From NCBI RefSeq assembly GCF_003194605.1, contig NZ_QHKY01000004.1, positions 1 to 64,000 on the forward strand: 64,000 bases of DNA, written 5' to 3'. Of the stretch, positions 34,993 to 54,846 are shown in pieces; the first letter of the stretch is position 1, and the number at the start of each line of letters is the position of its first letter. Both the position numbers and the translations under genes were made by a program. Under the pieces are notes generated by a model, which did not search any database, was not told the origin of the DNA, and saw only the letters and a list, made by a program, of their open reading frames with translations. This stretch comes from Nocardioides gilvus (GTDB lineage: Bacteria; Actinomycetota; Actinomycetes; Propionibacteriales; Nocardioidaceae).

Positions 34993-35071
34993 GCCCACTT
35001 GGGGAGCCGGCGCGAGTGGGGGTGACGCCCTGCGGGCCCCCACGCGAAGTTGCCCGAGGGCGCGGTACGCT

Positions 35072-35255
35072 CCCCGCAGCCAGTCGTACTCCGCCATCAC
35101 GGAGTCAGGGAATCCGGTGCAATCCCGGAACTGACGCGCAGCGGTAAGGGGACGGGAAGAACACGCCGGCAACGGCAGCCACTGGGCCCACGGGCCTGGG
35201 AAGGCGTTCTCTCCCGGTTGATCCGAGTCCGAAGACCTGCTGGCCCTGACGACAC
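35072..35255 (+). promoter_or_regulatory. Cobalamin riboswitch for cobG-cobH-cobIJ-cobM
   Basis: On the plus strand: agggaatccggtgcaatccc followed by ggaactgacgcgcagcggta (about 35106-35145), gccactggg (about 35178-35186), cctgggaaggcg (about 35195-35206), and gagtccgaagacctgctggc (about 35225-35244). A TACGCT (-10) is at 35066-35071. It is back to back with the importer riboswitch, with about 85 bp between the aptamers, and ends 50 bp before cobG. Cobalamin should repress the biosynthetic operon. Confidence 0.92.
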
Positions 35256-35305
35256 CCGTCGTCGGGTCACGAGGGTCCCGCGTACGGGCCCGGACTCCGA
35301 ACAAG

Positions 35306-36163
35306 GTGATGATTCCGGTGAACCGGATCCGACCAGACCGCTGCCCCGGCGCGCTGCGCCCCTGGCCAGCTGACGACGGCCTCCTCGTACGTCTGCGCCT
35401 GCCCGGCGGCAGACTGCGCGGCGAGCAACTCTCGGCCCTGCTGCACGTGGCCGAGCAGTACGGCGACGGCCGCGTGCACGTGACCAGCCGCACCAACCTG
35501 CAGGTCCGTGGGATGCCTGCCGACCCGGGCACCGAGCAACTCACCGACGAGGTCCTCCTGGCCATCGAAGGCACTGGGCTGCTGCCCAGTCGCGCCCACG
35601 ACCTGGCCCGCAACATCATGGCCTCGCCTCAGACCGGACTGGCCGGTGGTCGCGCCGACCTGAGGCCGGTGATCCGGGCGCTGGACGTTGGCCTGTGCAG
35701 CGACGCTGACCTCGCACACCTGCCGGGGCGCTTCCTCCTCGTGCTCGACGACGGACGAGGTGACCTGGTCGAGCGCAGCTGCGACCTGGGACTGGTGGCC
35801 CTCTGCGCGGAGTCGGTCCAGTTGCGGATCGGGAAGGGATGGGGCCCGGTGGTGCTACTCGAGGGGGTGCATCACCACCTGTTGGAGCTCGCTCGTCGTT
35901 TCCTCACCCTGCGACCGGCAGGCCCGGAGGCCCCGTGGCACGTGAGTGAGCTGACGACGACGCTCCTTCCGCCGCATCAAGCCGCCGCGGGGCTACCCGC
36001 CCCGGTGCCCGCGCTGCCGTACGGGCGCGTGCCGGGCGGGCACCACGTGCCGGTGCCTCCGGAAGGGCTCGACCGTCCCGCGGTGGAGCGTCTGCGCACC
36101 GCTGCCCCCGAACTTGTCGTCACGCCGTGGCGTGGCGTGCTCATCCCCGAGGAGACCCGATGA
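35306..36163 (+). CDS. cobG: CobG-like precorrin-3B synthase, lacking the Fe-S C-terminus
   Basis: A 285-residue protein clearly of the CobG family, the enzyme that oxidises precorrin-3A to precorrin-3B in the aerobic cobalamin route. The ferredoxin-like half domain (RCPGALRPW, LLVRLRLPGG, VTSRTNLQVRG at ~60-70) and following DLARNIMASPQTGLAGG (~100-116) are typical. Full-length actinobacterial CobG is about 360-400 residues and, from my knowledge of the family, carries C-x5-C and C-x3-C cluster ligands after TPWRG. Here the reading frame ends 13 residues after TPWRG and cobH begins at once, so the ligands are missing. Activity is doubtful. GTG 35306 is tentative; ATG 35309 and GTG 35318 are possible. 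Confidence 0.8.
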   Translation: MMIPVNRIRPDRCPGALRPWPADDGLLVRLRLPGGRLRGEQLSALLHVAEQYGDGRVHVTSRTNLQVRGMPADPGTEQLTDEVLLAIEGTGLLPSRAHDLARNIMASPQTGLAGGRADLRPVIRALDVGLCSDADLAHLPGRFLLVLDDGRGDLVERSCDLGLVALCAESVQLRIGKGWGPVVLLEGVHHHLLELARRFLTLRPAGPEAPWHVSELTTTLLPPHQAAAGLPAPVPALPYGRVPGGHHVPVPPEGLDRPAVERLRTAAPELVVTPWRGVLIPEETR

Positions 36164-36837
36164 AGACCACGTCCGTCCAGCCGCGGCGCCCGCAGCGTCA
36201 CTACGCGTACGTGGACCGAGGCCCGGCGATCTACCTCGACTCCTTCGCCATGATCCGGCGCGAGGCGGACCTGTCCCGGGTGCCCGCCACCGCCGAGAAG
36301 TTGGCGGTCCGGATGATCCACGGCAGCGGCCAGGTCGACCTGGCCCGCGATCTCGTCATCGATCCGCGCCTCGTGCCGGCCGCACGCGCGGCGCTCGATG
36401 CCGGCGCCCCGATCCTCTGCGACGCCACCATGGTGGTGAAGGGCGTGACCCGCAGCAGGTTGCCCCGGGACAACGAGGTGCTGTGCACCCTCAACGACCC
36501 CCGGGTCCCCGGCCTGGCCCAGGAGTGGGGGACCACACGTACGGCAGCGGCTGTCTCGTTGTGGGAGCCGCACCTCGAAGGTGCGGTGGTCGCGATCGGC
36601 AACGCGCCGACCGCACTTTTCCACCTCCTCGAGATGCTCGTCGACGGCGCTCCCCGCCCCGCCGCCATCGTCGGGTGTCCCGTCGGCTTCATCGGCGCCG
36701 CCGAGTCCAAGCTGGCGCTGGAGGAGTTCGCCGCCTCCTACGGGATCGACGTCCCGTTCGTCACCGTCCGCGGTCGCCGGGGTGGGTCCGCGATGACCTC
36801 CTCGGCTCTCAACGCACTGGCCCAGGAGCAGGAATGA
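36160..36837 (+). CDS. cobH: Precorrin-8X methylmutase
   Basis: Moves the C11 methyl to C12 to give hydrogenobyrinate, 225 residues. The catalytic His is in VRMIHGSGQVD near residues 48-58. ILCDATMVVKGVTRSRLP (about 87-104) and VGCPVGFIGAAESK near 178-191 are family signatures. ATG 36160 overlaps the cobG stop (ATGA), and its stop overlaps cobIJ. The length is normal. Confidence 0.95.
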   Translation: MKTTSVQPRRPQRHYAYVDRGPAIYLDSFAMIRREADLSRVPATAEKLAVRMIHGSGQVDLARDLVIDPRLVPAARAALDAGAPILCDATMVVKGVTRSRLPRDNEVLCTLNDPRVPGLAQEWGTTRTAAAVSLWEPHLEGAVVAIGNAPTALFHLLEMLVDGAPRPAAIVGCPVGFIGAAESKLALEEFAASYGIDVPFVTVRGRRGGSAMTSSALNALAQEQE

Positions 36838-38360
36838 GCACCGTCACGACGACCACCACCGGCCACTTCGCGGGAGTGGGAGTCGGGCCCGGCGACCCGG
36901 AGCTCATCACCCTCAAGGCAGCACGCCTCATCGAGCAGGCCCACGTGGTCGCCTATCACTGCGCACGAGGCAAGGAGTCCAACGCGCGCCGCATCGCCGC
37001 CGGGCTCTTCCCCGCAGGGGTCGTCGAGGAACGCCTCATCTACCCCGTGACCACGGGCAGCACCGACCACCCCGGGGGTTACACCGGCGTGCTCGCCGAG
37101 TTCTACGCGGAGTCGGCGGCGCGCCTCGCCGTCCACCTCGATGCCGGGCGCAACGTCGTGCTGCTCTCCGAGGGTGACCCGCTCTTCTACGGCTCGTACA
37201 TGTACATGCACGACCGATTGGCCGAGCGCTATCCCACCCAGATCGTCCCGGGGGTCCCGGCGTTCCTGGCGGCCACCGCGGCCACCGCCACCCCGCTGGT
37301 GCGCCAGACCGACGTGCTCACCGTCCTGCCCGGCACCCTGCCGGAGCCGGAGCTCGCGCGGCGCCTTGCCGACACCGACGGCGCCATCATCATGAAGCTG
37401 GGGCGTACGTTCCCCGCGGTGCGCCGTGCGCTCGCAGCCGCGGGGCGCCTCGACCACGCTTTGTACGTGGAGCGGGCCTCCATGCCGGAGGAGCGCTGGT
37501 TGCCGGTCGCCGACGTCGACGAGACGTCGGTGCCGTACTTCTCCCTCATCGTCGTCACCGGGGACAGCCTCAACGGTCGGCGCTCCCGCGACACCGAGGA
37601 AGCCGTCGGAGCACCTGTTGCCGCCGTGGCGTCGGCGGAGCTCCTGGTGGTGGGTCTCGGGCCGGGACCGGATGCCTGGCTCACCCCCGAGGTCAGCGCG
37701 GCGCTCGCAGACGTCGACCACGTCGTCGGGTACGCCCCGTACGTCAACCGGGTCCCGCAGCGTCGGGGGCTGACCAGGCACGCGTCGGGCAACACCGTCG
37801 AGATCGACCGCGCCGCCTTCGCGCTCGACCTGGCCGGGCGCGGCGAGAAGGTCGCCGTCGTGTCCGGAGGTGACGCGGGGGTGTTCGGGATGGCGGCCGC
37901 CGTCTTCGAGGCAGCCGAAGACCCGGCGTACGCCGATGTCGCGATCCGGGTGCTGCCCGGCGTGAGCGCGGTGCAGGCCGTGTCCGCCCGCGCGGGCGCC
38001 CCGGTGGGTGCGGACTTCGCGGTGATGAGTCTTTCGGACCGACTCAAGCCGTGGGAGGTGGTGGAGCAGCGGCTGCGGGCCGTCGCCCAGGCGGACCTCG
38101 TGCTGGCGATCTACAACCCCGCCTCCCGCAGCCGGACCGAGCAGGTCGCGACTGCCCGGCAGGTGCTTCTGGAGCACAAGTGCCCGGAGACGGTGGTGGT
38201 CGTGGGACGGGATGTTGGACGGGCCGAGGAGTCGTTGACGGTGACGACGCTGGGCGAGCTGGACCCGGCCACGATCGACATGAAGTGCCTGCTCATCGTG
38301 GGTGCCTCGTCGACCCGGGCGACACCGGCCGGTGTCTGGACCCCGCGGTACGTCCGATGA
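36834..38360 (+). CDS. cobIJ: CobI-CobJ fusion: precorrin-2 C20- and precorrin-3B C17-methyltransferase
   Basis: A bifunctional SAM methyltransferase of 508 residues, common in actinobacteria. The CobI half (1 to ~245) starts GVGVGPGDPELITLKAARLI and contains LSEGDPLFYGS near 104-114; it methylates C20 of precorrin-2. The CobJ half (~257-508) starts LLVVGLGPGPDAWLTPE and contains VVSGGDAGVFGMA near 342-354; it methylates C17 with ring contraction. Both halves keep the SAM-binding loops. ATG 36834 overlaps cobH by 4 bp and the stop overlaps cobM. Confidence 0.95.
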   Translation: MSTVTTTTTGHFAGVGVGPGDPELITLKAARLIEQAHVVAYHCARGKESNARRIAAGLFPAGVVEERLIYPVTTGSTDHPGGYTGVLAEFYAESAARLAVHLDAGRNVVLLSEGDPLFYGSYMYMHDRLAERYPTQIVPGVPAFLAATAATATPLVRQTDVLTVLPGTLPEPELARRLADTDGAIIMKLGRTFPAVRRALAAAGRLDHALYVERASMPEERWLPVADVDETSVPYFSLIVVTGDSLNGRRSRDTEEAVGAPVAAVASAELLVVGLGPGPDAWLTPEVSAALADVDHVVGYAPYVNRVPQRRGLTRHASGNTVEIDRAAFALDLAGRGEKVAVVSGGDAGVFGMAAAVFEAAEDPAYADVAIRVLPGVSAVQAVSARAGAPVGADFAVMSLSDRLKPWEVVEQRLRAVAQADLVLAIYNPASRSRTEQVATARQVLLEHKCPETVVVVGRDVGRAEESLTVTTLGELDPATIDMKCLLIVGASSTRATPAGVWTPRYVR

Positions 38361-39172
38361 CCGTGCACTTCGTGGGGGCCGGGCCGGGGGCGGCTGACCT
38401 GCTGACGGTCCGGGCGATACGGCTGTTGGCGTCTGCTGACGTGGTCCTCTACCCGGGCACCTACCTGGACCCCGACGTGCTGGCCCACTGTGGCCCGCAG
38501 GCGACGCTGGTCGACACCCAAGCTCTGGACCTCGACCAGATCACCGCGCACCTGGTCGACGGGTCCCGTGCCGGCCAGGAGGTCGTACGGCTCACCTCCG
38601 GCGACCCTTCTCTCTACTCGGCGTTGCACGAACAGACGAAGCGCCTGGATGCAGCGGGTGTCAGCTGGCAGGTGACGCCCGGGGTGCCGGCGTACGCAGC
38701 TGCAGCGGCACGCATCGGCAACGAGCTGACCGTGCCGCTGGTCGCGCAGTCGGTGGTGCTCACGCGTACGCAGGCCCGTTCGACACCGATGGGGGCGGGG
38801 GAGTCGTTGACCGACTTCGCCGCCACCGGAGCCACGCTGGTCCTACACCTGGCGATCACCCGGACTCGGGCGCTCATGGAGGAGCTGGAGCCGGTCGTCG
38901 GAGGCGACTGTCCGGTGGTGGTCGTGTACCGCGCCAGTCAGCCTGGAGAATTGGTCCTGCGAGGGACAGTCGACACGATCGCGGCCCGGGTGGAGGAGGC
39001 TGGGCTGCGTCAGGCCGCGGTGGTGTTGGTCGGGCGGGCGCTCGCTGAGTCGGGGGAGCGTGCGGGCGGTGAGTCCTACCTGTACAGCTCGGAGCGGGAT
39101 CGGCGGGTCAAGGGGTTGGGGGAGCAGGCGGCGGGTGCTGTGCAAGCGGGTCATACCCGCATGGACGAGTGA
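38357..39172 (+). CDS. cobM: Precorrin-4 C11-methyltransferase
   Basis: A 271-residue SAM methyltransferase of the cobalamin C-methyltransferase family; it methylates C11 of precorrin-4. HFVGAGPGAADLLTVRA (4-20), the LYPGTYL turn (~36) and RLTSGDPSLYSA near 78-89 identify CobM. The last ~25 residues are variable. It is the last gene of the riboswitch-controlled operon; an insertion of different composition starts right behind its stop. Confidence 0.93.
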   Translation: MTVHFVGAGPGAADLLTVRAIRLLASADVVLYPGTYLDPDVLAHCGPQATLVDTQALDLDQITAHLVDGSRAGQEVVRLTSGDPSLYSALHEQTKRLDAAGVSWQVTPGVPAYAAAAARIGNELTVPLVAQSVVLTRTQARSTPMGAGESLTDFAATGATLVLHLAITRTRALMEELEPVVGGDCPVVVVYRASQPGELVLRGTVDTIAARVEEAGLRQAAVVLVGRALAESGERAGGESYLYSSERDRRVKGLGEQAAGAVQAGHTRMDE

Positions 39173-40560: not shown

Positions 40561-40761
40561 CACTGAATTAGGTCGGTGGACGATGCACGCTTGTTCGGTG
40601 ACGTGTCCTGATCGCGGCGACTAGACGATTCCCGTAGGACCGACGTTCGGCCAGATTCGGTCCAGGTGATCGGCGGGCGGCTCTCTATACGGCTGCCACC
40701 GGTGCTTCTGGTGTGGCTCGGCCCCGGACCGCGGCCGTACTTCCGGCACACCCCGTCCTGC

Positions 40762-41433: not shown

Positions 41434-41439
41434 TGGGCG

Positions 41440-41445
41440 AGACTA
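41440..41445 (-). promoter_or_regulatory. -10 element of the HEPN-like gene
   Basis: TAGTCT on the minus strand, 6 nt before the ATG at 41433; leaderless spacing. Confidence 0.45.
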
Positions 41446-41611
41446 GTTGAGGTTCGGCGCTGGCGACTGGGCGCGGCGGATGCTCGCCTCTGGCTGCCCC
41501 TACGCGGCGGATGGACGCATGAGTGATCCGACGACGCTGCTTCGGGACTGTCGGCAGCGCAATCCCAAGACCCAGAGCGGCTCGAATGCGCCGTGGGAGA
41601 TTCCATATACG

Positions 41612-41617
41612 TACACT
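41612..41617 (+). promoter_or_regulatory. -10 element of the RelA/SpoT-HEPN gene
   Basis: TACACT inside an unusually AT-rich stretch (ccatatacgtacact). It would start a transcript near 41624, about 30 nt before a GTG with a gaggaa ribosome site (41647-41652). Confidence 0.4.
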
Positions 41618-44010: not shown

Positions 44011-44016
44011 GACAGC

Positions 44017-44167: not shown

Positions 44168-45394
44168 TCAACCCCTGAAACTCCACTGAGTCACGGTCCG
44201 CAGGGGCGTCCACCCGGTGAACGTCCCCACCGGCTGCGTCGTCTCCACAGCCAACCGCGTGAGCTCCCCGCCGTGGCGGTGGTAGGCGTCCCCGAGCAAC
44301 GACTCGGTCTCCAAGGTCACCCCGTGCACGACTAGGCGACCGCCCGGGCGCAGCGCGGCCAGACAGGCGTCCAGCACCCCGGGCCGCGTGGCGCCGCCGC
44401 CGATGAAGATCGCGTCCGGGACGTCGAGGCCCGTCAGCGCATCGGGGGCGCGACCCTCCACCACGCGTAGGTCGGGCACGCCGAGGCGTACGGCGTTGCG
44501 TCCGATTCGTGCCGCGCGCTCCGGGTCGGACTCCACAGCGGTCGTACGGCACGTCGGGTGAGCACGCATCCACTCGATGCCGACCGAACCGGCGCCGGCC
44601 CCGACGTCCCAGAGGTGCTGTCCGGGAGCAGGGGAGAGACGGGCCAGGGCCGAGGCACGCAGGTCGCGCTTGGTGAGTTGGCCGTCGTTCTCGAAGCTGT
44701 CGTCCGGGAGTCCGGCCACCCAGGAAGAGCGCCAAGCACCGGAGCCCGCAGGGATCTCGATGGCCAGCACGTGCAGCGCTGGTACGTCGTCGACAGGGGT
44801 CGTCGACCACTCCCGCGCACTCCTCTCGACCCGCGACTCGGCCTCGCTGCCGAGGTCGCCCAACACGGTCATCACAGCGTCTGGGTGACCGGTCTCGGTC
44901 AACAGTTCGCCGATGATCGACGGCGTCTCGGGACCCGACGTCAGGACCAGGATTCGGCGTCCCGGAGCGACTTCGCGCAGCACCCGCGCCTCGTGCCGTC
45001 CGACCAGCGTCACGACCACCGAATCCACGGCTGACCAGCGCATACGTGCTCGCGCCAGGGCCACCGACGAGACCGCCGGGACGATGCGTACGGCGTCCGC
45101 CCCGAGGGCCCGCACCAGTGTCGTGCCGATGCCCGAGACCAGGGGATCACCCGATGCCAGCACCACCACCCGACGTCCCCGCAACTCCTCCATCACCGAC
45201 GGCAGCGCGGGCGTCAGGGGGGAGGGCCAGGGGCGTCGATCCTGCCCCGCGACCGGCGCCACCAGGTCGAGGTGTCGACGTCCGCCGAGCACCACGTCGG
45301 CTCGGCGCACCAAGGCCTCGGCCGCAGCGTCGAGTGCCCCGTCGGCACTGATCCCGACCACGGTCACGAGGTGTCCACCGGGAGGGCCTGTCAT
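44168..45394 (-). CDS. cobL: Precorrin-6Y C5,15-methyltransferase (decarboxylating)
   Basis: A 408-residue bifunctional enzyme that methylates C5 and C15 of the corrin ring and decarboxylates the C12 acetate. The N-terminal methyltransferase domain (~8-200) contains LASGDPLVSGIG near 75-86. The C-terminal Rossmann domain (CbiT-like, ~215-400) has LWDVGAGAGSVGIEWM near 243-258 and DAIFIGGGATRPG near 311-323. Not in an operon: it faces the insert at its 3' end and diverges from the chlID riboswitch. ATG 45394 is used; an in-frame GTG at 45403 lies 9 nt after a TAGCCT hexamer and could be the true leaderless start. Confidence 0.93.
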   Translation of the reverse strand: MTGPPGGHLVTVVGISADGALDAAAEALVRRADVVLGGRRHLDLVAPVAGQDRRPWPSPLTPALPSVMEELRGRRVVVLASGDPLVSGIGTTLVRALGADAVRIVPAVSSVALARARMRWSAVDSVVVTLVGRHEARVLREVAPGRRILVLTSGPETPSIIGELLTETGHPDAVMTVLGDLGSEAESRVERSAREWSTTPVDDVPALHVLAIEIPAGSGAWRSSWVAGLPDDSFENDGQLTKRDLRASALARLSPAPGQHLWDVGAGAGSVGIEWMRAHPTCRTTAVESDPERAARIGRNAVRLGVPDLRVVEGRAPDALTGLDVPDAIFIGGGATRPGVLDACLAALRPGGRLVVHGVTLETESLLGDAYHRHGGELTRLAVETTQPVGTFTGWTPLRTVTQWSFRG

Positions 45395-45439
45395 GTCATC
45401 CACGAGTCGGGAGGCTATCGTCACGCCCAACACGTGAGG

Positions 45440-45597
45440 TGCCCCTGCGCCCCAGCCATCGGAAACGGTGGGGACGGACAACGGGGAGAATCTGGGAAGC
45501 CGGTGAAAATCCGGCACAGGCCCGCTGCGGTGAGCCGAGCACTCCGACAGGAGTGACTTGGTCAGTCCGAAGACCGGCCTCGCGACCAAGCCATCCA
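45440..45597 (+). promoter_or_regulatory. Cobalamin riboswitch for the chlID-cobA-cobO-cobBC-cobD operon
   Basis: Conserved elements on the plus strand: gggaagccggtgaaaatccg (about 45494-45513), then gcacaggcccgctgcggtgag (to about 45533), a short stem with actccgacaggagt (45541-45554), and gtcagtccgaagaccggc (about 45561-45578). It is the shorter type, lacking parts of the peripheral arms of the two upstream copies. A possible -10 (TATCGT) is at 45416-45421. It ends ~25 nt before the GTG of chlID and so probably hides the ribosome site when cobalamin is bound. Confidence 0.9.
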
Positions 45598-45621
45598 TGG
45601 CCTACGAGCGGGAGCCTCAAC

Positions 45622-47772
45622 GTGCCACTGAAGTACCCATTTTCTGCCGTCGTCGGCTGCGAGTACGACCCGACGACCGCCTCCGGTCTCGACGACATGG
45701 GCCTCGCCCTCGTCCTCACCTCGATCAGCCCCGCCATCGGCGGCGTCCTCGTGCGGGGCGAGAAGGGCACCGCGAAGTCGACCACTGTCCGCGGCCTGGC
45801 CGAGGTGCTGCCGTGGATCGACGTGCACGAGACCGACCGGTTCTCCGCCGATCCGCACGACCCGACGGCGACCTCGCCCGACGCAGCGTCGGGCACCACC
45901 GCAGTGGTCAGCCGTCCGGTGCGCCTGGTCGAGCTGCCCGTCGGCGCGACCGAGGACCGGGTGCTGGGTTCGCTCAACCTGGAGAAGGCGCTCACCGCCG
46001 GGGCCGTCGAGTTCGAGCCAGGACTGCTCGCCCGTGCCCACCGCGGCCTCCTCTACGTCGACGAGGTCAACCTGCTGCACGACCACCTGGTCGACCTGCT
46101 GCTCGACGCGGCCGCGACCGGACAGGTCACCGTCGAACGCGACGGGGTCTCGCTCGGCCACAGCGCCCGTTTCGTGCTGATCGGCACCATGAACCCCGAG
46201 GAGGGCGAGCTGCGCCCACAGCTCCTCGACCGGTTCGGCCTCACCGTCGAGGTCGCGGCACCGCGTGAGCCGGCGCTGCGCGTCGAGGTGGTGCGACGCC
46301 GCCTGGCCTTCGACCGCGACCCCGCCGAGTTCGCTGCGGCGTACGCGTCCAGCCAGGCCGAGCTGACTCGCCGCGTCGCCGAAGCCCGCGAGTGCCTCGA
46401 CGCGGTCACCCTCGGCGACGCCGCACTGCTCAAGATCGCCGAGGTGTGCGCCGCCTTCGAGGTGGACGGCCTGCGCGCCGACATCGTCACCGCGCGTACG
46501 GCGGTCGCCCACGCCGCGTGGGCCGGGCGTCGGTTCGTCACCCGCGGGGACATCCGGGCCGCGGCGCTGCTCGCGCTGCCGCACCGCCGGCGCCGCAATC
46601 CGTTCGATGCCCCCGGGTTGGACGAGGACCTGCTCGACCGGATCCTCGGCGACGACGAGCTGCCCGAACCGCCCGACCCCACCGACCCAGCTGACACCGA
46701 CCCCACGGGGACCGACGAGGGACCGTCCGACGACCCCGCGTCCCCTCCCGAAGACAGCCTGGACAACACCCCCGAGTCCGCCGACGAGCCCCACGACGCG
46801 CCCGCCGCCGTCGAGGACGCCCCTGACCTGGACACCCCGGGCCCCGCGACAGATCCCTCCGTAGCGGACCCCGAGCCACCCCTCGAGACGCCCGCACCCC
46901 CGCGAGCGCCCCAGCCGGACGGCCCCGGTGGCTGCACCACCGTCCAGGCCGAGCACGCCTACCGGCCACGTCTCTTCACCGTCGACGGCGTCGGCGAGGG
47001 CACTCCGGGGCGCCGCAGCCGGGCGCTCGGTGCCAGCGGTCGGCGCGTCGGCGCGTCTCCCGGCCACGGCTCCGCATCCGGCTCGGTGCACCTGGTCGAG
47101 ACCCTGCGGGCCGCCGCCGAACGGCACGCCGGCGGGCCCGCCGCGAGCGATCTGGCTGGGTCCCGAGGCCGCTTCACCCTGCATCCCGCCGACCTGCGCA
47201 CCGCCGTGCGCGAGGGGCGCGAGGCCAACCTGCTGCTCTTCTGCGTCGACGCGTCCGGCTCCATGGCGGCGCGGCGCCGGATGACCCAGGTGAAGACCGC
47301 GATCCTCTCGCTGCTCACCGATGCCTACCGGCGACGCGACAAGGTCGCCATGATCAGCTTCCGCGGAGCCGACGCCCACCTGACCCTGCCGCCCACCGGC
47401 TCGGTCGAGATCGCCGCCGCGCTGCTGGGCGACCTCCCGGCCGGGGGACGTACGCCGCTCGCGGAAGGGCTGCTGATGGCCGGCGCCGTCCTGCGTCGCG
47501 AACGCCTCCGCGATCCTCGACTGCGCCCGCTGCTGGTGCTCGTCACCGACGGCCGCGCCACCGCAGGCGCCGACCCGGTCGTACGTTCGCGCCAGGCCGC
47601 CGCGCACGTCGCAGCCCTGGGCGTGCCGAGCGTGGTCGTCGACTGTGAGGACGGGCCGCTGCGCTTCGGGTTGGCCCGCACGCTCGCGACCCACCTGCGC
47701 GCCGAGCACGTCCCGATGGCGCAGGTGAGCGCCACCGGACTGGTCGACGTCGTCTCCGGGCGGGTGGCGTGA
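45622..47772 (+). CDS. ChlI-ChlD fusion chelatase subunit (cobaltochelatase partner of CobN)
   Basis: A 716-residue AAA+/VWA fusion. The N-terminal ChlI/BchI-type AAA+ domain (1 to ~330) holds Walker A GEKGTAKST near 50-58 and Walker B GLLYVDEVNLL near 142-152. A highly acidic, Pro-rich linker covers ~350-440. The C-terminal VWA domain has MIDAS DASGSM near 545-550. In actinobacteria such fusions replace CobS and CobT and drive cobalt insertion with CobN into hydrogenobyrinate a,c-diamide. Location in the cobalamin region and control by a cobalamin riboswitch fit this role; no chlorophyll genes are present. GTG 45622 is preferred over ATG 45439, which would read through the riboswitch. Confidence 0.9.
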   Translation: MPLKYPFSAVVGCEYDPTTASGLDDMGLALVLTSISPAIGGVLVRGEKGTAKSTTVRGLAEVLPWIDVHETDRFSADPHDPTATSPDAASGTTAVVSRPVRLVELPVGATEDRVLGSLNLEKALTAGAVEFEPGLLARAHRGLLYVDEVNLLHDHLVDLLLDAAATGQVTVERDGVSLGHSARFVLIGTMNPEEGELRPQLLDRFGLTVEVAAPREPALRVEVVRRRLAFDRDPAEFAAAYASSQAELTRRVAEARECLDAVTLGDAALLKIAEVCAAFEVDGLRADIVTARTAVAHAAWAGRRFVTRGDIRAAALLALPHRRRRNPFDAPGLDEDLLDRILGDDELPEPPDPTDPADTDPTGTDEGPSDDPASPPEDSLDNTPESADEPHDAPAAVEDAPDLDTPGPATDPSVADPEPPLETPAPPRAPQPDGPGGCTTVQAEHAYRPRLFTVDGVGEGTPGRRSRALGASGRRVGASPGHGSASGSVHLVETLRAAAERHAGGPAASDLAGSRGRFTLHPADLRTAVREGREANLLLFCVDASGSMAARRRMTQVKTAILSLLTDAYRRRDKVAMISFRGADAHLTLPPTGSVEIAAALLGDLPAGGRTPLAEGLLMAGAVLRRERLRDPRLRPLLVLVTDGRATAGADPVVRSRQAAAHVAALGVPSVVVDCEDGPLRFGLARTLATHLRAEHVPMAQVSATGLVDVVSGRVA

Positions 47773-48557
47773 TGAGCTCGCTCGCACCCCTGCTGCCCGG
47801 CTCCGTGGCGCTGGTCGGCGGAGGTCCGGGCGACCCGGGCCTGATGACCGTCGCCGGACGCGCAGCCGTCGAGCAGGCCGACGTACTGCTCGTCGACCAC
47901 CTGGCCCCCGAAGGCGCACTGGCCTGGGCCCGGGAGGAGGCACTGGTCGTGGACGTGTCCAAACTGCCCCGCGGAGCCTTCACCCCGCAGGCGCGGATCA
48001 ATGAGCTCCTGGTCGAGCACGCCCGCGCGGGACGGCGCGTCGTCCGGCTCAAGGGCGGGGACGGCTTCGTCTTCGGCCGCGGGATGGAGGAGCTCCTTGC
48101 CTGCACCGAGGCGCAGGTGGAGGTCCGGGTGATCCCCGGCGTCACCTCATCGGTCGCCGTCCCCGCCCTGGGCGGCATCCCGGTCACGCACCGCGGGTTG
48201 GTGCAGGGGTTCAGCGTCATCTCCGGGCACGTACCCCCCGACCATCCCGACTCCACCCTCGACTACGCCGCCCTGACGCGCTCCGGCACGACGCTGGTCG
48301 TCCTGATGGGGGTCGCGACGCTGCCGGCCATCACCGCCGCCCTGCTCGACGCCGGCCTCGATCCGGACACCCCGGCAGCGGTCGTGGCCCGCGGTGGTCA
48401 CCCGGACCAACAGGTCGTACGCGCGTCCGTCACCGAGATCGCCACAGCGGCGGCTCACGTGGACCCGCCCGCCGTCACCGTCATCGGCGCGGTGGCGGCC
48501 TTCGCCACCTCGACCGACACCGCCACCGACACCCGCACTCTCGAAGAGGTCTTCTGA
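47769..48557 (+). CDS. cobA: Uroporphyrinogen-III C-methyltransferase
   Basis: A 262-residue SUMT that makes precorrin-2 with two SAM, the entry to the cobalamin path. VALVGGGPGDPGLMTVAG (13-30), RLKGGDGFVFGRG near 93-105, and PGVTSSVAVPALGGIPVTHRG near 121-141 are the family signatures. There is no attached CysG oxidase/chelatase domain. GTG 47769 or ATG 47772 starts it, both overlapping the chlID stop. Stop and start with cobO overlap as TGATG. Confidence 0.94.
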   Translation: MMSSLAPLLPGSVALVGGGPGDPGLMTVAGRAAVEQADVLLVDHLAPEGALAWAREEALVVDVSKLPRGAFTPQARINELLVEHARAGRRVVRLKGGDGFVFGRGMEELLACTEAQVEVRVIPGVTSSVAVPALGGIPVTHRGLVQGFSVISGHVPPDHPDSTLDYAALTRSGTTLVVLMGVATLPAITAALLDAGLDPDTPAAVVARGGHPDQQVVRASVTEIATAAAHVDPPAVTVIGAVAAFATSTDTATDTRTLEEVF

Positions 48558-49171
48558 TGCCCCAGGGTCAGCCGCTCACCGTCCCCGACGACGGCCTCAC
48601 CACCCGCCAACGCCGCAACCGACCCCTGCTGATGGTCCACACCGGGGATGGCAAGGGGAAGTCCACCGCCGCCTTCGGTCTCGCAATCCGGGGTTGGAAC
48701 CAGGGCTGGTCCATCGGGGTCTTCCAGTTCGTGAAGTCGGCCAAGTGGCGCATCGGGGAGCAGACCGTGCTCGAACGCCTCGGCCGTCTGCACGAGGAGA
48801 CCGGCGAGGGCGGCCCGGTGGAGTGGCACAAGATGGGCGCGGGCTGGTCCTGGACCAAGAAGCAGGGAGACACCGAAGACCACGCGCGTACCGCCGCCGA
48901 AGGCTGGCAGGAGATCAAGCGGCGTCTGGCCGCCGAAGCCCACGACCTCTATGTGTTGGACGAATTCGTCTACCCGATCGCCTGGGGGTGGGTCGACCTC
49001 GACGACGTGGTCACCACGCTGCGCGACCGCCCCGGTCGCCAACACGTGGTCGTCACCGGACGACGCGCCGCGCCCGAGCTCGTCGAGGTGGCTGACCTCG
49101 TCACCGAGATGACCAAGGTCAAGCACCCCATGGACGTCGGCCAGAAGGGCCAACGGGGGATCGAGTGGTGA
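48557..49171 (+). CDS. cobO: Cob(I)alamin adenosyltransferase, CobO/BtuR type
   Basis: Adenosylates the reduced corrinoid with ATP; 204 residues, cytosolic. The P-loop GDGKGKST is at 30-37, and VLDEFVYPIAWGWVD near 133-147 matches the family. The C-terminus has KHPMDVGQKGQRGIEW. The length is typical of the CobA/CobO (not PduO) type. It is coupled to cobA upstream and to cobBC downstream by overlaps. Confidence 0.95.
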   Translation: MPQGQPLTVPDDGLTTRQRRNRPLLMVHTGDGKGKSTAAFGLAIRGWNQGWSIGVFQFVKSAKWRIGEQTVLERLGRLHEETGEGGPVEWHKMGAGWSWTKKQGDTEDHARTAAEGWQEIKRRLAAEAHDLYVLDEFVYPIAWGWVDLDDVVTTLRDRPGRQHVVVTGRRAAPELVEVADLVTEMTKVKHPMDVGQKGQRGIEW

Positions 49172-51675
49172 GTCCGGCCGGCTCCGACGTCGCGGCGGCG
49201 ACCAGCCTGCCGCGCCTGGTCATCGCGGCGCCCTCGACCGGGCAGGGCAAGACCACGATCTCGACCGGTCTGATGGCGGCGCTGCGCGGTCGCGGGCTGG
49301 AGGTCTCGGGCCACAAGGTCGGCCCCGACTACATCGACCCCGGCTACCACGCCCTGGCCACCGGACGCCCCGGACGCAACCTCGACCCTCACCTGGTCGG
49401 TGAGGAGCGCATTGCCCCGTTGCTCCTGCACGGCGCGCGGGGTGCCGACGTGGCGGTGATCGAGGGCGCGATGGGGCTGCACGACGGCCGCCTCGGCACC
49501 GACGGCTTCTCCTCCACGGCGCACGTGGCCAAGCTGACGCGTACGCCGGTCGTGCTGGTCGTGGACATCTCTCGGATGTCGCGCTCCGTCGGCGCTGTCG
49601 TGGCTGGCATGGCTTCCTATGACCCGGACGTCGACGTCGTGGGCGTGATCCTGAACCGTGCCGGATCGGCGCGCAACATCGCGGAGGTCGAGCGCAGCCT
49701 GCGCCTCCCTGTCCTGGGGGTCGTGCCGGGCAGGGACGACATCTCGTCGCCCTCGCGCCACCTCGGCCTGGTCCCGGCGGGGGAGCGCCACGAGTCGGCG
49801 GAGACGGTCGAACGCCTGGGTGAGCAGGTCGGGCGTCACGTCGACCTCGACGCGCTGCTCGACGTTGCCCGGGGAGCGCCTGGCCTGACCGCCGTCGCTT
49901 GGGACCCGCACCGTGAGGTGCGCGTTGTCACCGCAGACGCGCCCGTGGTGGCCGTGGCCGGCGGACGGGCCTTCACCTTCGCGTACGCCGAGACCGAAGA
50001 GTTGTTGCGTGCGGCGGGCTGTCGCGTCGTCCACTTCGACCCGTTGCGCGACCCGGCGCTGCCCGAGGGCACCCGTGCTCTTCTGCTGGGTGGCGGGTTC
50101 CCCGAGGTCCATGTCCAGCAACTGTCCCGCAACCGCGTCCTGCTCGAGCAGGTCAGGGATGCGGTGAAGGCCGGGCTGCCCACCGTCGCCGAGTGCGCCG
50201 GACTCCTCTACCTCATCGACTCCTTGGACGGCTCCGCGATGGCGGGTGTGATCGGCACCAGTGCGGCGATGGGGGAGCGTCTGGTGCTGCGCTATCCGGA
50301 GGCGATCGCGGCGAGCGACAACCTGCTGACCCGCGCCGGGGAGCGGGTGCACGGCCATGAGTTCCATCGCACTGCGCTGACTGCACCTGCGCGCGGGTGG
50401 ACGCCCGCCTGGGAGATCGACGGCGAACTGATCGGGGCGGGCACCCCCACCCTGCACGCCTCCTACCTGCACACCCATTGGGCCGGACACCCGGTGATGG
50501 CGCGGCGACTGGCCGAGGCCGCGGCCCGCGCCACCCCGGTCACGGTGCGGGCGCCGTCGGCCACGGTCGTACGCATGCCGGCAGCCGATCCTGAAGTGAC
50601 CGGCGCTGCAGTTACCGATGTGACGGTGACCGACGTGGCCGTGACAGATCCACTGCTGCACCACGGTGACGTGGAGACCGGACATGGACTCGTCGACTTC
50701 GCGGTCAACGTGCACCCCGAGCCGCGTCCCGCCTGGCTGGAGAGCGCACTGCGCGACGGCGTCCAACGCTCGCTCACCTACCCGGACCCGACCCCGGCAC
50801 GCGCCGCCATCGCCGAGCTGCACCACCGTCGTCCCGACGAGGTCCTGGTGACCGCCGGAGCGGCGGAGGCGTTCGAACTGGTCGCCCGGTGGAAACCGTG
50901 GCGTCACGCGGTGGTCGTGCACCCCCAGTTCACCGAACCCCATGCGGCCCTGGAGCGGGCCGGCCACCACGTCACCGCGGTGCACTGCCGCCCCGAGGAC
51001 GGCTACCGACTCGACGCCTCTGCGGTGCCCGAGGACGCCGACCTGGTCATCCTCGGCAACCCGACCAACCCGACCGGCGTGCTGCACCCGGCCGAGGAGA
51101 TCCTCAAGCTGCGTCGTCCCAAACGGGTCGTGGTGGTCGACGAGGCCTTCATGGACGCGGTCGTCGACCCGAGCCAGTCACTGGCGGGGGACCGGCGCCG
51201 CGGCCTGCTCGTCGTACGCAGCCTGACGAAGCACTGGTCGATCCCGGGCATCCGCGCCGGCTACGTGCTCGGCAACGACCGGGTCATCACCGGCCTGGCC
51301 GCCAGACAGGTGCCCTGGTCGGTCTCCACACCGGCCATCGCAGCCGCGCTCGCCTGCACCGGCTCCGAGGCCGCGATCGAGGGCGCGCGTCGGGCCAGAC
51401 GGATCGCGCAGTGGCGCACCGCGCTGGTGGACGCCCTGCACCAGCGCGGCATCGAGGTCATCGGCTCCGAGACCTCTTTCGTGCTGGCCCGGCTGGGGCG
51501 CGGGACCCGGGAGAGGTTGCGTGACCACGGCGTGGCCGTGCGCCGGGCCGACACCTTCCCGGGTCTGGACGCGGAGTGGGCCAGGATCGCCGTCCGGCCA
51601 CCGGAGACGACTGCCCAGCTGCTGCGTGCGCTGGACGACGTACGCGCCGGCGCCTCGGCCGCGCTCGGCGCATGA
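49165..51675 (+). CDS. cobBC: CobB-CobC fusion: cobyrinate a,c-diamide synthase and CobC-like aminotransferase
   Basis: 836 residues. The CobB half (1 to ~460) amidates the a and c side chains with glutamine and ATP: P-loop APSTGQGKTT at ~22-31, GATase nucleophile C344 (VAECAGLLYL), and catalytic His near 435 (LHTHW). After a Val/Thr-rich linker (~470-500) comes a PLP-dependent CobC/HisC-like half (~500-836): NPTNPTG near 631-637 and Lys689 in SLTKHWSIPG as Schiff-base lysine. CobC makes or attaches aminopropanol phosphate. Such fusions put two distant steps of the path in one chain. GTG 49165 and GTG 49168 both overlap the cobO stop. Confidence 0.93.
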   Translation: MVSPAGSDVAAATSLPRLVIAAPSTGQGKTTISTGLMAALRGRGLEVSGHKVGPDYIDPGYHALATGRPGRNLDPHLVGEERIAPLLLHGARGADVAVIEGAMGLHDGRLGTDGFSSTAHVAKLTRTPVVLVVDISRMSRSVGAVVAGMASYDPDVDVVGVILNRAGSARNIAEVERSLRLPVLGVVPGRDDISSPSRHLGLVPAGERHESAETVERLGEQVGRHVDLDALLDVARGAPGLTAVAWDPHREVRVVTADAPVVAVAGGRAFTFAYAETEELLRAAGCRVVHFDPLRDPALPEGTRALLLGGGFPEVHVQQLSRNRVLLEQVRDAVKAGLPTVAECAGLLYLIDSLDGSAMAGVIGTSAAMGERLVLRYPEAIAASDNLLTRAGERVHGHEFHRTALTAPARGWTPAWEIDGELIGAGTPTLHASYLHTHWAGHPVMARRLAEAAARATPVTVRAPSATVVRMPAADPEVTGAAVTDVTVTDVAVTDPLLHHGDVETGHGLVDFAVNVHPEPRPAWLESALRDGVQRSLTYPDPTPARAAIAELHHRRPDEVLVTAGAAEAFELVARWKPWRHAVVVHPQFTEPHAALERAGHHVTAVHCRPEDGYRLDASAVPEDADLVILGNPTNPTGVLHPAEEILKLRRPKRVVVVDEAFMDAVVDPSQSLAGDRRRGLLVVRSLTKHWSIPGIRAGYVLGNDRVITGLAARQVPWSVSTPAIAAALACTGSEAAIEGARRARRIAQWRTALVDALHQRGIEVIGSETSFVLARLGRGTRERLRDHGVAVRRADTFPGLDAEWARIAVRPPETTAQLLRALDDVRAGASAALGA

Positions 51676-52601
51676 ACGCGTCACGGGCCCTGGGGCTGGT
51701 GCTGGGGTTCGTCGCGGACAGGCTTCTCGGCGACCCGCGCCGCGGCCATCCGGTCGCCGGGTTCGGCACTCTTGCTGCTCGACTCGAAGGCCGCCTGTAC
51801 GACGACTCGCGCGCCTGGGGGACGGCGTACACAGCCCTGCTCGTGGGTGGCTCCGCCGGGCTGGGGGTCGGCCTTGAGCGGCTCTGCCGTCACCGGCCGG
51901 GGTTGCATGTCGTGGTCACGGCCCTCGCCACGTGGACGGTGCTGGGCGGCCGGAGTCTCGAGCGCGAGGCGCTGGCGGTCCACCGGTTCCTGGCCGACGA
52001 CGACCTGGCCGGCGCACGTCACCGCCTCACCTACCTGGTCGGTCGCGACACGAGCAGCCTGTCGCCCGACGAGGTGGCGCGAGCGGTGGTCGAGTCCGTC
52101 GCGGAGAACACCTCCGACGCCGTCACGGCACCACTGGTGTGGGGCGCGGCGGCGGGAGTTCCCGGTCTCCTGGCCCACCGGGCGGCCAACACGCTGGACG
52201 CGATGGTGGGACACCGCAACCCGCGCTACGAACGTTTTGGGTGGGCCTCCGCGCGTCTCGACGATCTGCTCAACCTGCCGGGCTCGCGGCTGGCCGGACT
52301 GTCGGTGCTCGTGGCCGCACCTGGTCGAGCCGGTGCAGCGTGGCAGACCTGGCGGCGTGATGCCGCAAAGCACCCCAGCCCGAACGGCGGCGTGGTGGAG
52401 TCAGCGTTCGCCGGGGCTCTCGGGGTCACGCTGGGGGGCACCAACCAGTACGGAGACCGGCTCGAGCGCCGTCCCACCATGGGGGACGGGCCCGCTCCCA
52501 CGCGCGATGACATCCCCCGATCCACCGGCCTTGCAGGACGCGCGGGTGTGGTCGCCCTCGCCGCGGCCGTTGGAGTGGCCGCTCGGGGTCAGCGACCCTG
52601 A
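51672..52601 (+). CDS. cobD: Adenosylcobinamide-phosphate synthase (CobD/CbiB)
   Basis: A 309-residue membrane protein that joins adenosylcobyric acid to aminopropanol or its phosphate. Several hydrophobic segments, plus DRLLGDPRRGHPVAGFG near 14-30 and the conserved RDTSSLSPDEVARAVVESVAENTSD near 116-140. ATG 51672 overlaps the cobBC stop (ATGA). It is the last gene of the operon started by the third riboswitch and converges with cobK. Confidence 0.92.
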   Translation: MNASRALGLVLGFVADRLLGDPRRGHPVAGFGTLAARLEGRLYDDSRAWGTAYTALLVGGSAGLGVGLERLCRHRPGLHVVVTALATWTVLGGRSLEREALAVHRFLADDDLAGARHRLTYLVGRDTSSLSPDEVARAVVESVAENTSDAVTAPLVWGAAAGVPGLLAHRAANTLDAMVGHRNPRYERFGWASARLDDLLNLPGSRLAGLSVLVAAPGRAGAAWQTWRRDAAKHPSPNGGVVESAFAGALGVTLGGTNQYGDRLERRPTMGDGPAPTRDDIPRSTGLAGRAGVVALAAAVGVAARGQRP

Positions 52602-52612: not shown

Positions 52613-53338
52613 TCAACGGTGCGACAGCACCCACTCCAGAGCCGGACCCACCGTGTCGACGACGAGCGCACGGGGGTCAGGCCTAGGCCGTTCGACGACC
52701 ACGACGGGGATGTCGAGCTCAGCGGCCGCCTGCATCTTGGGCCAGGTGTAGGTGCCGCCGGAGTCCTTGGTGACCAGCACGTCGCAGCGGTGCTCACCCA
52801 TCACCTCCAGGTCGCCCGCGAGCGTGTACGGACCACGGCTGGTCAGCAACCGCCATGACGGTGGCAGCGAGATGTCCGGCGCGTCGACCACCCGGGCCAG
52901 CACGTGCGCGTCGGTGAGGGCCGGGAGGAACCGGGCCAGCTCCTGGCGCCCGACGGTGAGGAAGGGGCGCTCGCCCAGCGAAGCCGCCAGCACGGCTGCC
53001 TCGTCGTGGGTGGTCACGTAGCGCCAGGCTGGGTCAGGCTCCCAGCCCGGCCGCTCGAACCGGAGCAGGGGGACCTGCTCGCCCGCGCAGGCCTCGACCG
53101 CGTTGGCGCTCATCCCACGCGCGAACGGATGGGTGGCGTCCACGACCAGGTCGTAGTCGACGAGTGCGCTCCGCAGCCCGGCCACGCCGCCGAATCCACC
53201 GATCCGCACCGGTCCCACCGGCAGTCGCGGCCGGTCGACCCGTCCCGCCAGCGACGAAGTGACGTCGACGTCGGCCTGCACGAGCAGACTCGCGAGGTCA
53301 CGCGCCTCCGCAGTGCCGCCGAGCAGCAGGACCTTCAT
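52613..53338 (-). CDS. cobK: Precorrin-6A reductase
   Basis: NADPH-dependent reduction of precorrin-6A to 6B, 241 residues. N-terminal [16 protein letters not shown] (4-19), [14 protein letters not shown] near 68-81, and [16 protein letters not shown] near 190-205 identify CobK/CbiJ. Cytosolic. It overlaps cobQ by 4 bp and ends the operon driven by the fourth riboswitch. Confidence 0.94.
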
Positions 53339-54846
53339 CGCTGACCTTCCCTGGCGAGCGCGGGCCTGGCGAGCGCGGGCACGGCCAGGATCGGGAGGGA
53401 GTCAGGTGCGCCATCCCGGGCCAGGGCGAGCAGGGCATCGACGTCGAGGTGTGCTTCGACGAGGTCGGCGAGGAGCTCCATGCGACGCTCGCGGGCGGCC
53501 GGAAAACTGACGCCCGACGGAGCGAGTCCCGCCACCTCGGCGAGGAAGGCGGCCCGGAACGCGTCGCCCTCGAGGCTGCCGTGCCACATGGTGCCGAAGA
53601 CCTGAGCCGTGCGTGCCCCGCCGAGGAACTCCTCGGCACCGTCGTCGCGGGTGATCCGTCCGTGATGGATCTCGTAGCCCTCGGCGGGTGCGCCGAGAGC
53701 TGCGCCGGACGGCAGACGCAGCGCCTTCTCGGCGGCGAAGGCGGTGGCCACGGGCAGCAGGCCGAGTCCCTCGGCGTACGCACCGACCGCGCCCTCGACG
53801 CCGTCGGGGTCACGGATCTCGCGCCCTAACATCTGGAAGCCGCCGCAGATGCCGAGCACCGGCCGCCCCGCCGCGGCGTGGGCGGTGATCGCGGCGTCGA
53901 GCCCGCGCGTACGCAACCAGGCCAGGTCGGCGAGCGTGGCCCGGGTGCCCGGTAGCACCACGAGGTGGGCATCAGCCAGGTCACGCGGGTCGGAGACGAA
54001 GACGACGTCGAGGTCGGGCTCCAACCCGAGCGCGTCGACGTCGGTGAAGTTGCTGATCCGGGGGAGTCGTACGACCGCCACCCGCACCCGCGCCGCCGTG
54101 CGGGTGCGCCGCCCCTCCAGGTCGAGAGCGTCCTCGGAGTCGAGCCACAGATCCGGGTGCCACGGCAGCACGCCGTGGACCGGCCGGCCGGTGAGCGCTT
54201 CCAACCGCACCAGCCCCGGACGCAGCAACCCCAGGTCTCCACGGAACTTGTTGACCACGAAGCCCGCCACCAACGCCTGGTCGGCGGGCTGGAGCAGCGC
54301 GAGCGTGCCGAACATCGCCGCGAAGAGCCCGCCACGATCGATGTCACCCACCACCACCACCGGGAGGTCGGCGTGCCGTGCCAGCCCCATGTTCACGTAG
54401 TCGCTGGCGCGCAGGTTGATCTCGGCCGGGCTCCCTGCCCCCTCGGCCACCACCACGTCGAAGCGGGCGGCGAGATCGTCGTACGCCGCGTGGGCGGCCC
54501 GCGCCAGGTGCCGGCGTCCGGTGGCGAAGTCGCCCGCCGACACCTCGCCGGCGGGTTGACCCATCACCACGACGTGGCTGCGGTGGTCCGACCCCGGCTT
54601 GAGGAGCACGGGATTCATGGCCGGCTCAGGGGTCACCCGGGCGGCGAGCGCCTGCACCCACTGGGCCCGGCCGATCTCTGCGGGGCTCCCGTCGCGGTCG
54701 AAGCAGACCATCGAGTTGTTCGACATGTTCTGTGCCTTGAAGGGCGCCACCGAGACCCCGCGGCGGGCAAACGCGCGGCACAGACCCGTGGTGACGACCG
54801 ACTTCCCGGCGTCCGACGTGGTGCCGGCGACCAGCAGTCCACTCAT
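53335..54846 (-). CDS. cobQ: Cobyric acid synthase
   Basis: Amidates side chains b, d, e and g of adenosylcobyrinate diamide with four glutamines; 503 residues. P-loop GTTSDAGKS at 8-16, [11 protein letters not shown] near 35-45, and [12 protein letters not shown] near 125-136. GATase nucleophile C334 in [11 protein letters not shown] and catalytic His in TMWHGSLE near 417. ATG 54846 gives the canonical N-terminus; upstream frame is shadow of cobF. It overlaps cobF upstream and cobK downstream. Confidence 0.95.

What the first reader, a model, noticed from the sequence alone, without database searches (positions are those of the whole stretch)
35306..36163. CobG without its Fe-S ligands
The protein stops 13 residues after the conserved TPWRG, exactly where other CobG proteins continue with the C-x5-C and C-x3-C ligands of the 4Fe-4S cluster. 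The next gene starts at once, so the loss is a clean deletion, not an assembly artefact of the end. The rest of the aerobic path is present, so either the pathway is broken here, the step uses another enzyme (for example CobZ-like), or this protein has a different job.
Basis: partly seen in the sequence, partly recalled or inferred. Interest (0 to 1): 0.62.

Follow-up and report, generated by a model that had tools for sequence, protein, structure and literature searches.

The report
Vitamin B12 oxygenase without iron-sulfur domain
In this bacterium and many of its relatives, the enzyme thought to add oxygen during vitamin B12 synthesis has lost its whole iron-sulfur part yet is still kept by selection, so these bacteria may carry out a textbook B12 step in an unknown way.

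Summary
In detail: the only CobG of this genome (35309-36163, 284 aa) ends 8 residues after TPWRG, before the C-x5-C/C-x3-C ligands, and overlaps cobH. It is not local damage. Short CobG forms one supported clade: the Cys motif is in 0 of 98 short sequences (90 distinct), the four Cys in 39 of 39 full-length ones. The 80 named loci span ten actinobacterial families. Its dN/dS equals that of the matching part of full CobG (0.289 and 0.284); some copies are fused to CobH; cobF is kept in 39 of 39 genomes (four duplicated). A full-length CobG coexists in 1 of 24 named genomes; CobZ passes cut-off in 0 of 24; no clear separate CobG-type Fe-S domain was found in 24. The protein models confidently as a siroheme-reductase fold minus its cluster domain, keeps the tetrapyrrole-site residues and swaps others (W19, H211, H246). 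Best reading: a distinct Fe-S-independent CobG that performs, or is the substrate-binding part of, precorrin-3A oxygenation. Activity and electron source are untested.

The parts
35064..35258 (+). cobalamin riboswitch upstream of the short cobG
   Evidence: Rfam RF00174, 88.1 bits, gathering 31.5
35306..36163 (+). short cobG: siroheme-reductase-type protein lacking the Fe-S domain
   Evidence: Pfam NIR_SIR_ferr 1.2e-15; TIGR02435 positions 2-162 only; AlphaFold2 pLDDT 94.1, pTM 0.90; aligns to nitrite reductase NirA residues 21-388, Z 21.7
36160..36837 (+). cobH (precorrin-8X methylmutase), overlapping the cobG stop; fused to cobG in some relatives
   Evidence: NF006136 321 bits, cut-off 276; fusions
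36834..38360 (+). cobIJ fusion: by family makes precorrin-3A (CobI) and uses precorrin-3B (CobJ)
   Evidence: NF004647 336 bits and TIGR01466 306 bits, both over cut-off
38357..39172 (+). cobM
   Evidence: TIGR01465 255 bits, just under cut-off 259.65
44168..45598 (-). cobL (CbiE+CbiT), start codon uncertain
   Evidence: TIGR02467 and TIGR02469 over cut-off, searched as 44168-45400
45439..47772 (+). ChlI/ChlD-type chelatase subunit, start codon uncertain
   Evidence: TIGR02442 693 bits over positions 23-640, under cut-off 779 with a query that began at 45730
47769..48557 (+). cobA
   Evidence: TIGR01469 252 bits, cut-off 185
49165..51675 (+). cobB-cobC fusion
   Evidence: CbiA, GATase_3 and aminotransferase domains in one ORF
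51672..52601 (+). cobD
   Evidence: PF03186 317 bits
52613..53338 (-). cobK
   Evidence: NF005968 272.7 bits, cut-off 231
53335..54846 (-). cobQ
   Evidence: CbiA and GATase_3 domains; name by domain order, start codon uncertain
54843..55595 (-). cobF, specific to the aerobic route
   Evidence: TIGR02434 244.6 bits, cut-off 195.8
55592..59203 (-). cobN, cobaltochelatase large subunit
   Evidence: TIGR02257 1103.9 bits, cut-off 822

Best explanation
The gene encodes a member of a distinct, Fe-S-free subfamily of CobG. It is the siroheme-reductase fold cut at the border of the Fe-S domain: both ferredoxin-like half domains and the domain between them remain, and the whole cluster-bearing domain is gone. 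Shown: domain loss in a single clade, retained tetrapyrrole-site residues (numbered from ATG 35309: R28, R30, T59, R61, N63, Q65, R67, R101, R141), purifying selection, linkage and fusion to cobH, near mutual exclusion with full-length CobG, no CobZ over cut-off and no clear detached CobG-type Fe-S domain in the genomes searched. Inferred: it binds precorrin-3A between CobI and CobJ where siroheme sits in sulfite and nitrite reductases, and carries out, or is the substrate-binding part of, the O2-dependent C20 hydroxylation/lactone formation that gives precorrin-3B, without a built-in 4Fe-4S cluster. The two electrons and the O2-activating centre would come from a mononuclear iron held by residues peculiar to this clade, from a diffusible reductant, or from a general redox protein not encoded in the cluster.
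For: One clade, SH-aLRT 99, stem 0.67 (72-row quick tree). Cys motif in 0 of 98 short sequences (90 distinct); all four Cys in 39 of 39 full. Tetrapyrrole-site residues conserved in both types; clade-specific W19, H211, H246, R173 in 90 of 90 distinct shorts; in 9 further shorts outside that set W19 and H211 9 of 9, H246 and R173 7 of 9. dN/dS 0.289 (113 pairs) versus 0.284 for the same part of full CobG (30 pairs). CobG-profile and CobH presence across the 341 genomes of the window's family: 213 both, 4 and 2 alone, 122 neither (my comparison by eye of the lists). CobF over cut-off in 39 of 39 short-CobG genomes and 0 of 10 genomes lacking CobG/CobH. Only 1 of 24 named short-CobG genomes has a full CobG too; in a Mycobacterium-type genus 12 of 14 genomes with a short-type match have no full-type match. 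CobZ over cut-off in 0 of 24. Fe-S domain profile: no clear CobG-type domain in 24 short-CobG genomes; 4 of 4 full-length controls found. No new Cys motif in partner CobH (80 short-type versus 21 full-type) or CobIJ (78 versus 21). Confident AlphaFold2 model with siroheme-reductase fold.
Against: No enzyme activity is shown, and no B12 measurement was found for a named strain whose short cobG was read. CobG of P. denitrificans is reported to contain an Fe-S centre and a mononuclear non-haem iron (title of a JBC 2009 paper, seen only as a reference inside PMC7242693), so losing the cluster domain removes a component thought to matter. A net monooxygenation needs two electrons (my reading of the chemistry), and no donor was identified. 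Three genomes carry both short and full CobG, so a second role is conceivable. Two of nine further shorts lack H246. Some copies look broken: L147, L148 and L153 are split over two frames (L147 and L148 were fetched because they looked split) and G238 and G258 have a TGA inside the match. Short cobG evolves faster than its cobH neighbour (60 of 84 pairs computed). A CobZ-like protein below cut-off (274.8 of 372.55 bits) occurs in Nocardiopsis alba.
Confidence: 0.6

Rival explanations
1. Two-component oxygenase: short CobG only binds and orients precorrin-3A, and a separate protein encoded elsewhere (flavin reductase, ferredoxin, flavin monooxygenase or a siroheme-type reductase) supplies the redox centre.
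For: The fold lacks the face that carries the cluster in sulfite and nitrite reductases, leaving room for a partner; sulfite-reductase-sized matches are in all 24 named genomes.
Against: Besides cob genes, the only recurrent neighbour I recognised is a BluB-like gene in 15 of 80 loci (my reading of the sequence), so no partner is seen linked in all (several other recurrent clusters there look like antisense or off-frame ORFs and were not resolved). In loci such as L031 and L033 cobG, H, IJ, M and L lie end to end with little room between them. The flavin monooxygenase beside cobN in the window is ArsO type and is found in only 1 of 80 loci, of which only 6 reach cobN.
Confidence: 0.2
2. The step is done by an unrelated, unrecognised oxygenase, and short CobG has a different job (chaperone for the unstable precorrin-3A or 3B, or CobIJ/CobH assembly).
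For: Fusion to CobH, a later enzyme; CobIJ of short-type clusters has its own invariant residues; three genomes carry both types.
Against: Nearly mutually exclusive with full CobG and same slot in front of cobH, as expected of a replacement; no CobZ over cut-off in 24.
Confidence: 0.1
3. The pathway is broken, or the gene is a decaying remnant.
For: A component reported for CobG is missing; three fetched copies (L147, L148, L153) are split over two frames and two (G238, G258) have a TGA inside the match.
Against: dN/dS equal to full CobG, cobF kept in 39 of 39, riboswitch in front, spread of the cluster between genera.
Confidence: 0.08
4. Assembly or frameshift artefact at 36150-36165.
For: None found.
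Against: The same end in 90 unfused short rows (eight genomes of the whole set counted twice) from separate assemblies; no match to the Fe-S domain in the genome.
Confidence: 0.01

Closest known systems
CobG, precorrin-3B synthase (NCBIfam TIGR02435)
   Same: Same slot in the cob operon; N-terminal part up to TPW homologous with conserved C12, R28, R30, T59, R61, N63, Q65, R67, H97, R101, R141, W210, E214, T272, W274
   Different: No C-x5-C / C-x3-C cluster domain; H19 to W, R211 to H, new H246 and R173; below the family cut-off
Ferredoxin nitrite reductases and sulfite reductase haemoprotein (for example 1zj8, 2akj, 1aop)
   Same: Fold: residues 3-284 align with NirA 21-388, Z 21.7, rmsd 3.9
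   Different: Ends before the cluster domain; about half the length; 12-21% identity over the 25 best entries
CobZ of Rhodobacter capsulatus
   Same: An alternative to CobG for the same step (PMC7242693, passages read)
   Different: Described as quite distinct, with flavin, haem and Fe-S (title seen in the reference list); CobZ is not found over cut-off in 24 short-CobG genomes

Membership tests
CobG / TIGR02435 equivalog | score over the curated cut-off across the full model | tested here: not met
   115.1 bits against 234.8, positions 2-162 of 388
CobG / TIGR02435 equivalog | 4Fe-4S ligands C-x5-C and C-x3-C | tested here: not met
   motif in 0 of 98 short sequences, 90 of them distinct; all four Cys columns filled in 39 of 39 full
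CobG / TIGR02435 equivalog | N-terminal siroheme-fold part with the conserved T-x-R-x-N-x-Q-x-R motif and active-site arginines | tested here: met
   T59, R61, N63, Q65, R67, R28, R101 in 90 of 90, R141 in 89 of 90; that these sit at the siroheme site of sulfite reductase is recalled, with sequence alignment to nitrite reductases
CobG / TIGR02435 equivalog | place in the aerobic cob operon beside cobH and cobIJ with cobF and cobN in the genome | tested here: met
CobG / TIGR02435 equivalog | O2-dependent conversion of precorrin-3A to precorrin-3B | not testable with these tools
   needs biochemistry
CobZ (TIGR02485) | presence of a CobZ over the curated cut-off in the short-CobG genomes | tested here: not met
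   0 of 24 genomes (the window's and 23 named) over 372.55 bits; best 274.8 in Nocardiopsis alba
Siroheme sulfite/nitrite reductases | overall fold of the part present | tested here: met
   Z 17-22 to the 25 best entries, all nitrite or sulfite reductases
Siroheme sulfite/nitrite reductases | cluster and siroheme-ligating Cys domain | tested here: not met
   domain absent

The most novel reading that the evidence does not exclude
Short CobG is an iron-sulfur-independent precorrin-3B synthase in its own right: an oxygenase on half a siroheme-reductase fold, in which clade-invariant H211 and H246 with E214 (shared with full CobG) form a new mononuclear metal site, or in which the reduced tetrapyrrole itself activates O2. 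The module cobG(short)-H-IJ-M would then be a third, horizontally mobile solution to the aerobic B12 ring-contraction step beside CobG and CobZ.
Probability: 0.35. Interest if true: 0.82.

Novelty: new variant of a known kind. Interest (0 to 1): 0.63.

Why it matters
The oxygenation before ring contraction is the step that needs O2 in aerobic B12 synthesis, and how CobG does it is, to my knowledge (recalled), unresolved; its Fe-S centre and mononuclear iron are the known clues. A natural, widespread, selected CobG that lacks the cluster domain separates substrate binding, and perhaps oxygenation, from the cluster and gives a smaller protein for structural work. Genome-based B12 predictions that require a full-length CobG would miss these bacteria (inference: the window protein scores half the NCBIfam cut-off).

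Tried and rejected
Searched for a replacement or a partner: CobZ (below cut-off only), a detached CobG-type Fe-S domain (in short-CobG genomes the hits, E 2e-6 or weaker, fall in frames of about 560-920 aa, sizes I read as sulfite reductase and NirB, except one in a 365-aa frame of Dietzia G732 and two at 0.005-0.006 in 184- and 347-aa frames of Aestuariimicrobium G723), new Cys motifs in CobH and CobIJ (single Cys C173 in CobH, C485 in CobIJ shared with 9 of 21 full-type, no motif), recurrent neighbours. The flavin monooxygenase at 59448-60575 was considered as a replacement oxygenase and set aside: it is ArsO.

A 2-His-1-carboxylate site (H211, E214, H246) was considered; it could not be tested because no model coordinates were laid in the Python box. 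It stays in the section on the most novel reading only.

I first took 'cobN diverging upstream' as a mark of the full-length clusters of the genus; on rechecking, several short clusters (L046, L060, L082, L153, L154) have the same arrangement, so I dropped it.

Literature: the listings show no paper that describes a CobG without the Fe-S domain, and no B12 measurement for Nocardioides, Nocardiopsis or Dietzia; most subscription papers are not in that library. Of PMC8192938 I read section 6, the outline and passages; of PMC7242693, PMC8123684 and PMC2667541 passages only; the CobG JBC 2009 paper was not held.

Rows dropped before counts: fused CobH parts were cut off; ten full-length rows and 55 of 98 short rows were left out; pairs outside nucleotide identity 0.74-0.985 (short) or under 0.74 (full), with dS of 0.7 or more, or (short) sharing few 9-mers were left out; one search computed 60 of 84 pairs; L147, L148, L153, L156 and L158 (split or cut by a contig end) were left out. 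Of the 324 relatives reported only the 80 kept were read. Match lists were cut by the tool.

Eight of the 98 short rows repeat a genome (90 distinct). In one search at least four of the 39 genomes are the same genome under two handles (G551/G736, G654/G735, G895/G740, G871/G734, same coordinates).

Full report
What is there. The ORF at 35306-36163 (GTG; ATG at 35309; numbering below counts that ATG as residue 1) encodes 284 residues from the ATG and ends VVTPWRGVLIPEETR, eight residues after TPWRG; its stop overlaps the start of cobH. Pfam finds one NIR_SIR_ferr half domain and NCBIfam CobG matches positions 2-162 of 388 only, half the cut-off score. A cobalamin riboswitch lies directly upstream at 35064-35258, one of four in the window. 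The window also holds cobH, cobIJ, cobM, cobL, a ChlID-type chelatase subunit, cobA, a cobB-cobC fusion, cobD, cobK, cobQ, cobF and cobN, i.e. the late-cobalt aerobic route.

Not a local loss. The same-genus copies L001-L018 first read are short in 18 of 18, three of them (L005, L008, L009) fused to CobH; of three further same-genus loci, L025 is short too, and L019 and L021 are split over two frames. One scan of named genomes reported 324 relatives and kept 80; all 80 kept, read to their stop, are short or run in frame into CobH; the other 244 were not read. The 80 fall in Nocardioidaceae 41, Nocardiopsidaceae 13, Mycobacteriaceae (Mycolicibacter) 12, Pseudonocardiaceae 2, Streptomycetaceae 2, Dietziaceae 2, and one each in Streptosporangiaceae, Intrasporangiaceae, Propionibacteriaceae and Gordoniaceae, with 4 unplaced.

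Two clean types. I aligned 98 short (90 distinct) and 39 full-length actinobacterial CobGs. All four Cys are present in 39 of 39 full-length rows. The full Cys motif is found in 0 of 98 short ones; the 90 unfused ones have a tail of 9-27 residues from the T of TPW, against 99-164 in the full-length ones. In these rows both types share C12, R28, R30, T59, R61, Q65, R67, R101, W210, E214 and T272 without exception, and N63, H97, R141 and W274 with one or two exceptions. The short type alone has W19 (H in 38 of 39 full), H211 (R in 36 of 39), H246 (mostly G or V) and R173 (mostly L), each in 90 of 90. In nine further short proteins from the same family that were not in this set, W19 and H211 held in 9, H246 and R173 in 7; in six further full-length ones H19 held in 6 and R211 in 6, and two have D at 214; position 272 or 274 departs in three of the nine shorts, one of them fused and perhaps misaligned there. 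A 72-row quick tree of the shared part puts all 43 short rows on one side of a branch with support 99 and length 0.67.

Horizontal movement. The tree does not follow taxonomy. Locus L033 (Thermocrispum municipale) is 98.4% identical to Nocardioides sp. J54 over 11.4 kb starting about 540 bases upstream of cobG, with no match upstream of that point at the threshold used; a second copy in the same contig (L046) is 92-94% identical to other Nocardioides over 11.1 kb. In the window's family, six genomes have a full-length CobG by match span (G182, G209, G211, G218, G234, G331, list cut), and a seventh (G360) shows part of the Fe-S domain at a contig end. CobH of the six is only 59-66% identical to the window's, against 69-85% in the twelve short-type stretches L147-L155, L157, L159 and L160 fetched with them, so the module seems to be replaced as a block.

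It is maintained. Over 113 pairs of short cobG, median dN/dS is 0.289; over 30 pairs of the matching part of full-length cobG it is 0.284. Short cobG evolves faster than the neighbouring cobH. In 341 genomes of the family, comparison by eye of the lists gives 213 with both a CobG-profile match and CobH, 4 and 2 with only one, and 122 with neither. The CobG-profile matches include the six full-length and some weak or fragmentary ones; of the rest I read only sequences. CobF is over cut-off in 39 of 39 short-CobG genomes (at least four repeated) and in 0 of 10 genomes without CobG/CobH, one of which has a sub-threshold match. Full-length CobG coexists in 1 of 24 named short-CobG genomes (Gordonia sp. 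ABSL11-1). In 198 genomes of a Mycobacterium-type genus the scores are bimodal: 14 genomes have a short-type match (E of 4e-113 or better), 12 of them with no second match and 2 with a second, full-type match; all other matches are at 1e-63 or weaker. Against this, L147, L148 and L153 are split over two frames and G238 and G258 have a TGA inside the match.

No obvious substitute. CobZ reaches its cut-off in 0 of 24 genomes (the window's and 23 named; best 274.8 of 372.55 bits in Nocardiopsis alba). A profile of the missing domain finds nothing in the window's genome and, in the other 23 short-CobG genomes, only matches of E 2e-6 or weaker, nearly all in long frames whose sizes fit sulfite reductase or NirB; the four full-length controls are found strongly. 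CobH and CobIJ of short-type clusters have normal length and no new Cys motif. Clustering of neighbours showed no further gene that I could recognise as common to the loci (the ORF caller kept antisense ORFs on this GC-rich DNA), and in compact loci such as L031 and L033 cobG, H, IJ, M and L lie end to end.

Structure. AlphaFold2 gives a confident model of the window protein (pLDDT 94.1, pTM 0.90) and of a full-length relative (90.3, 0.91). The short model aligns over residues 3-284 with residues 21-388 of M. tuberculosis NirA (Z 21.7, rmsd 3.9) and over most of its length with residues 81-405 of the sulfite reductase haemoprotein. The cluster Cys of the latter are at 434-483 (recalled), so the protein stops at the border of the cluster domain. 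By the pattern of conserved residues it keeps the cationic face that in sulfite reductase binds siroheme and substrate (recalled), and loses the opposite, cluster-bearing side.

How it probably works. The most likely reading is that short CobG still takes precorrin-3A from CobI and gives precorrin-3B to CobJ, without a built-in cluster. Fold, selection, context and mutual exclusion are shown; substrate, reaction and electron source are inferred. The chief rival is a two-component system with an unlinked redox partner. In either case the protein fails two defining features of the CobG family and should not be filed as a TIGR02435 member; it is a sister subfamily that may work like it.

Bearing on B12 production. 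The NTM study PMC8192938 (section 6 read) reports B12 in cells of non-tuberculous mycobacteria, lowest value 3.7 ng per mg protein in M. innocens; M. terrae JCM 12143 is on its strain list. Its gene table has a dash for cobG in M. terrae, but also for the other cob genes whose rows I saw, so the dash says little. M. terrae's individual value is in a figure I could not see, and its own cobG was not read here; 12 of 12 Mycolicibacter loci that I read are short.

Noticed in passing
L033 and L046 (Thermocrispum municipale DSM 44069, one contig): Two copies of the short-CobG B12 cluster about 25 kb apart, 98% and 92-94% identical to different Nocardioides over 11 kb starting near cobG: recent horizontal transfer of the whole module, or an assembly mix-up.
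   Followed up: partly
L005, L008, L009, L053, L055, L056, L061, L068, L154: Short cobG fused in frame to cobH (L005/L055 and L009/L053 are the same genome twice).
   Followed up: partly
window 49165-51675: cobB and the cobC-type aminotransferase are one fused ORF of 836 aa.
   Followed up: no
window 39772-44113: ORFs between cobM and cobL with no match in any of the 80 related loci: probably an insertion into the B12 cluster.
   Followed up: no
window 59448-60575: ArsO-family flavin monooxygenase divergent from cobN and its riboswitch; found in 1 of 80 loci.
   Followed up: partly
G790, G889, G730: Genomes with both short-type and full-type CobG matches: natural test cases for whether the two are redundant.
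   Followed up: no
G732 (Dietzia massiliensis), contig C389: A partial CobG-like match with a stop and a small part of the Fe-S domain, possibly the remnant of a former full-length CobG beside the short one.
   Followed up: no
L151 and L152 (G158, G128): Divergent short CobGs with TPAR or TPDR in place of TPWR and without H246; possibly an early branch of the short clade.
   Followed up: partly
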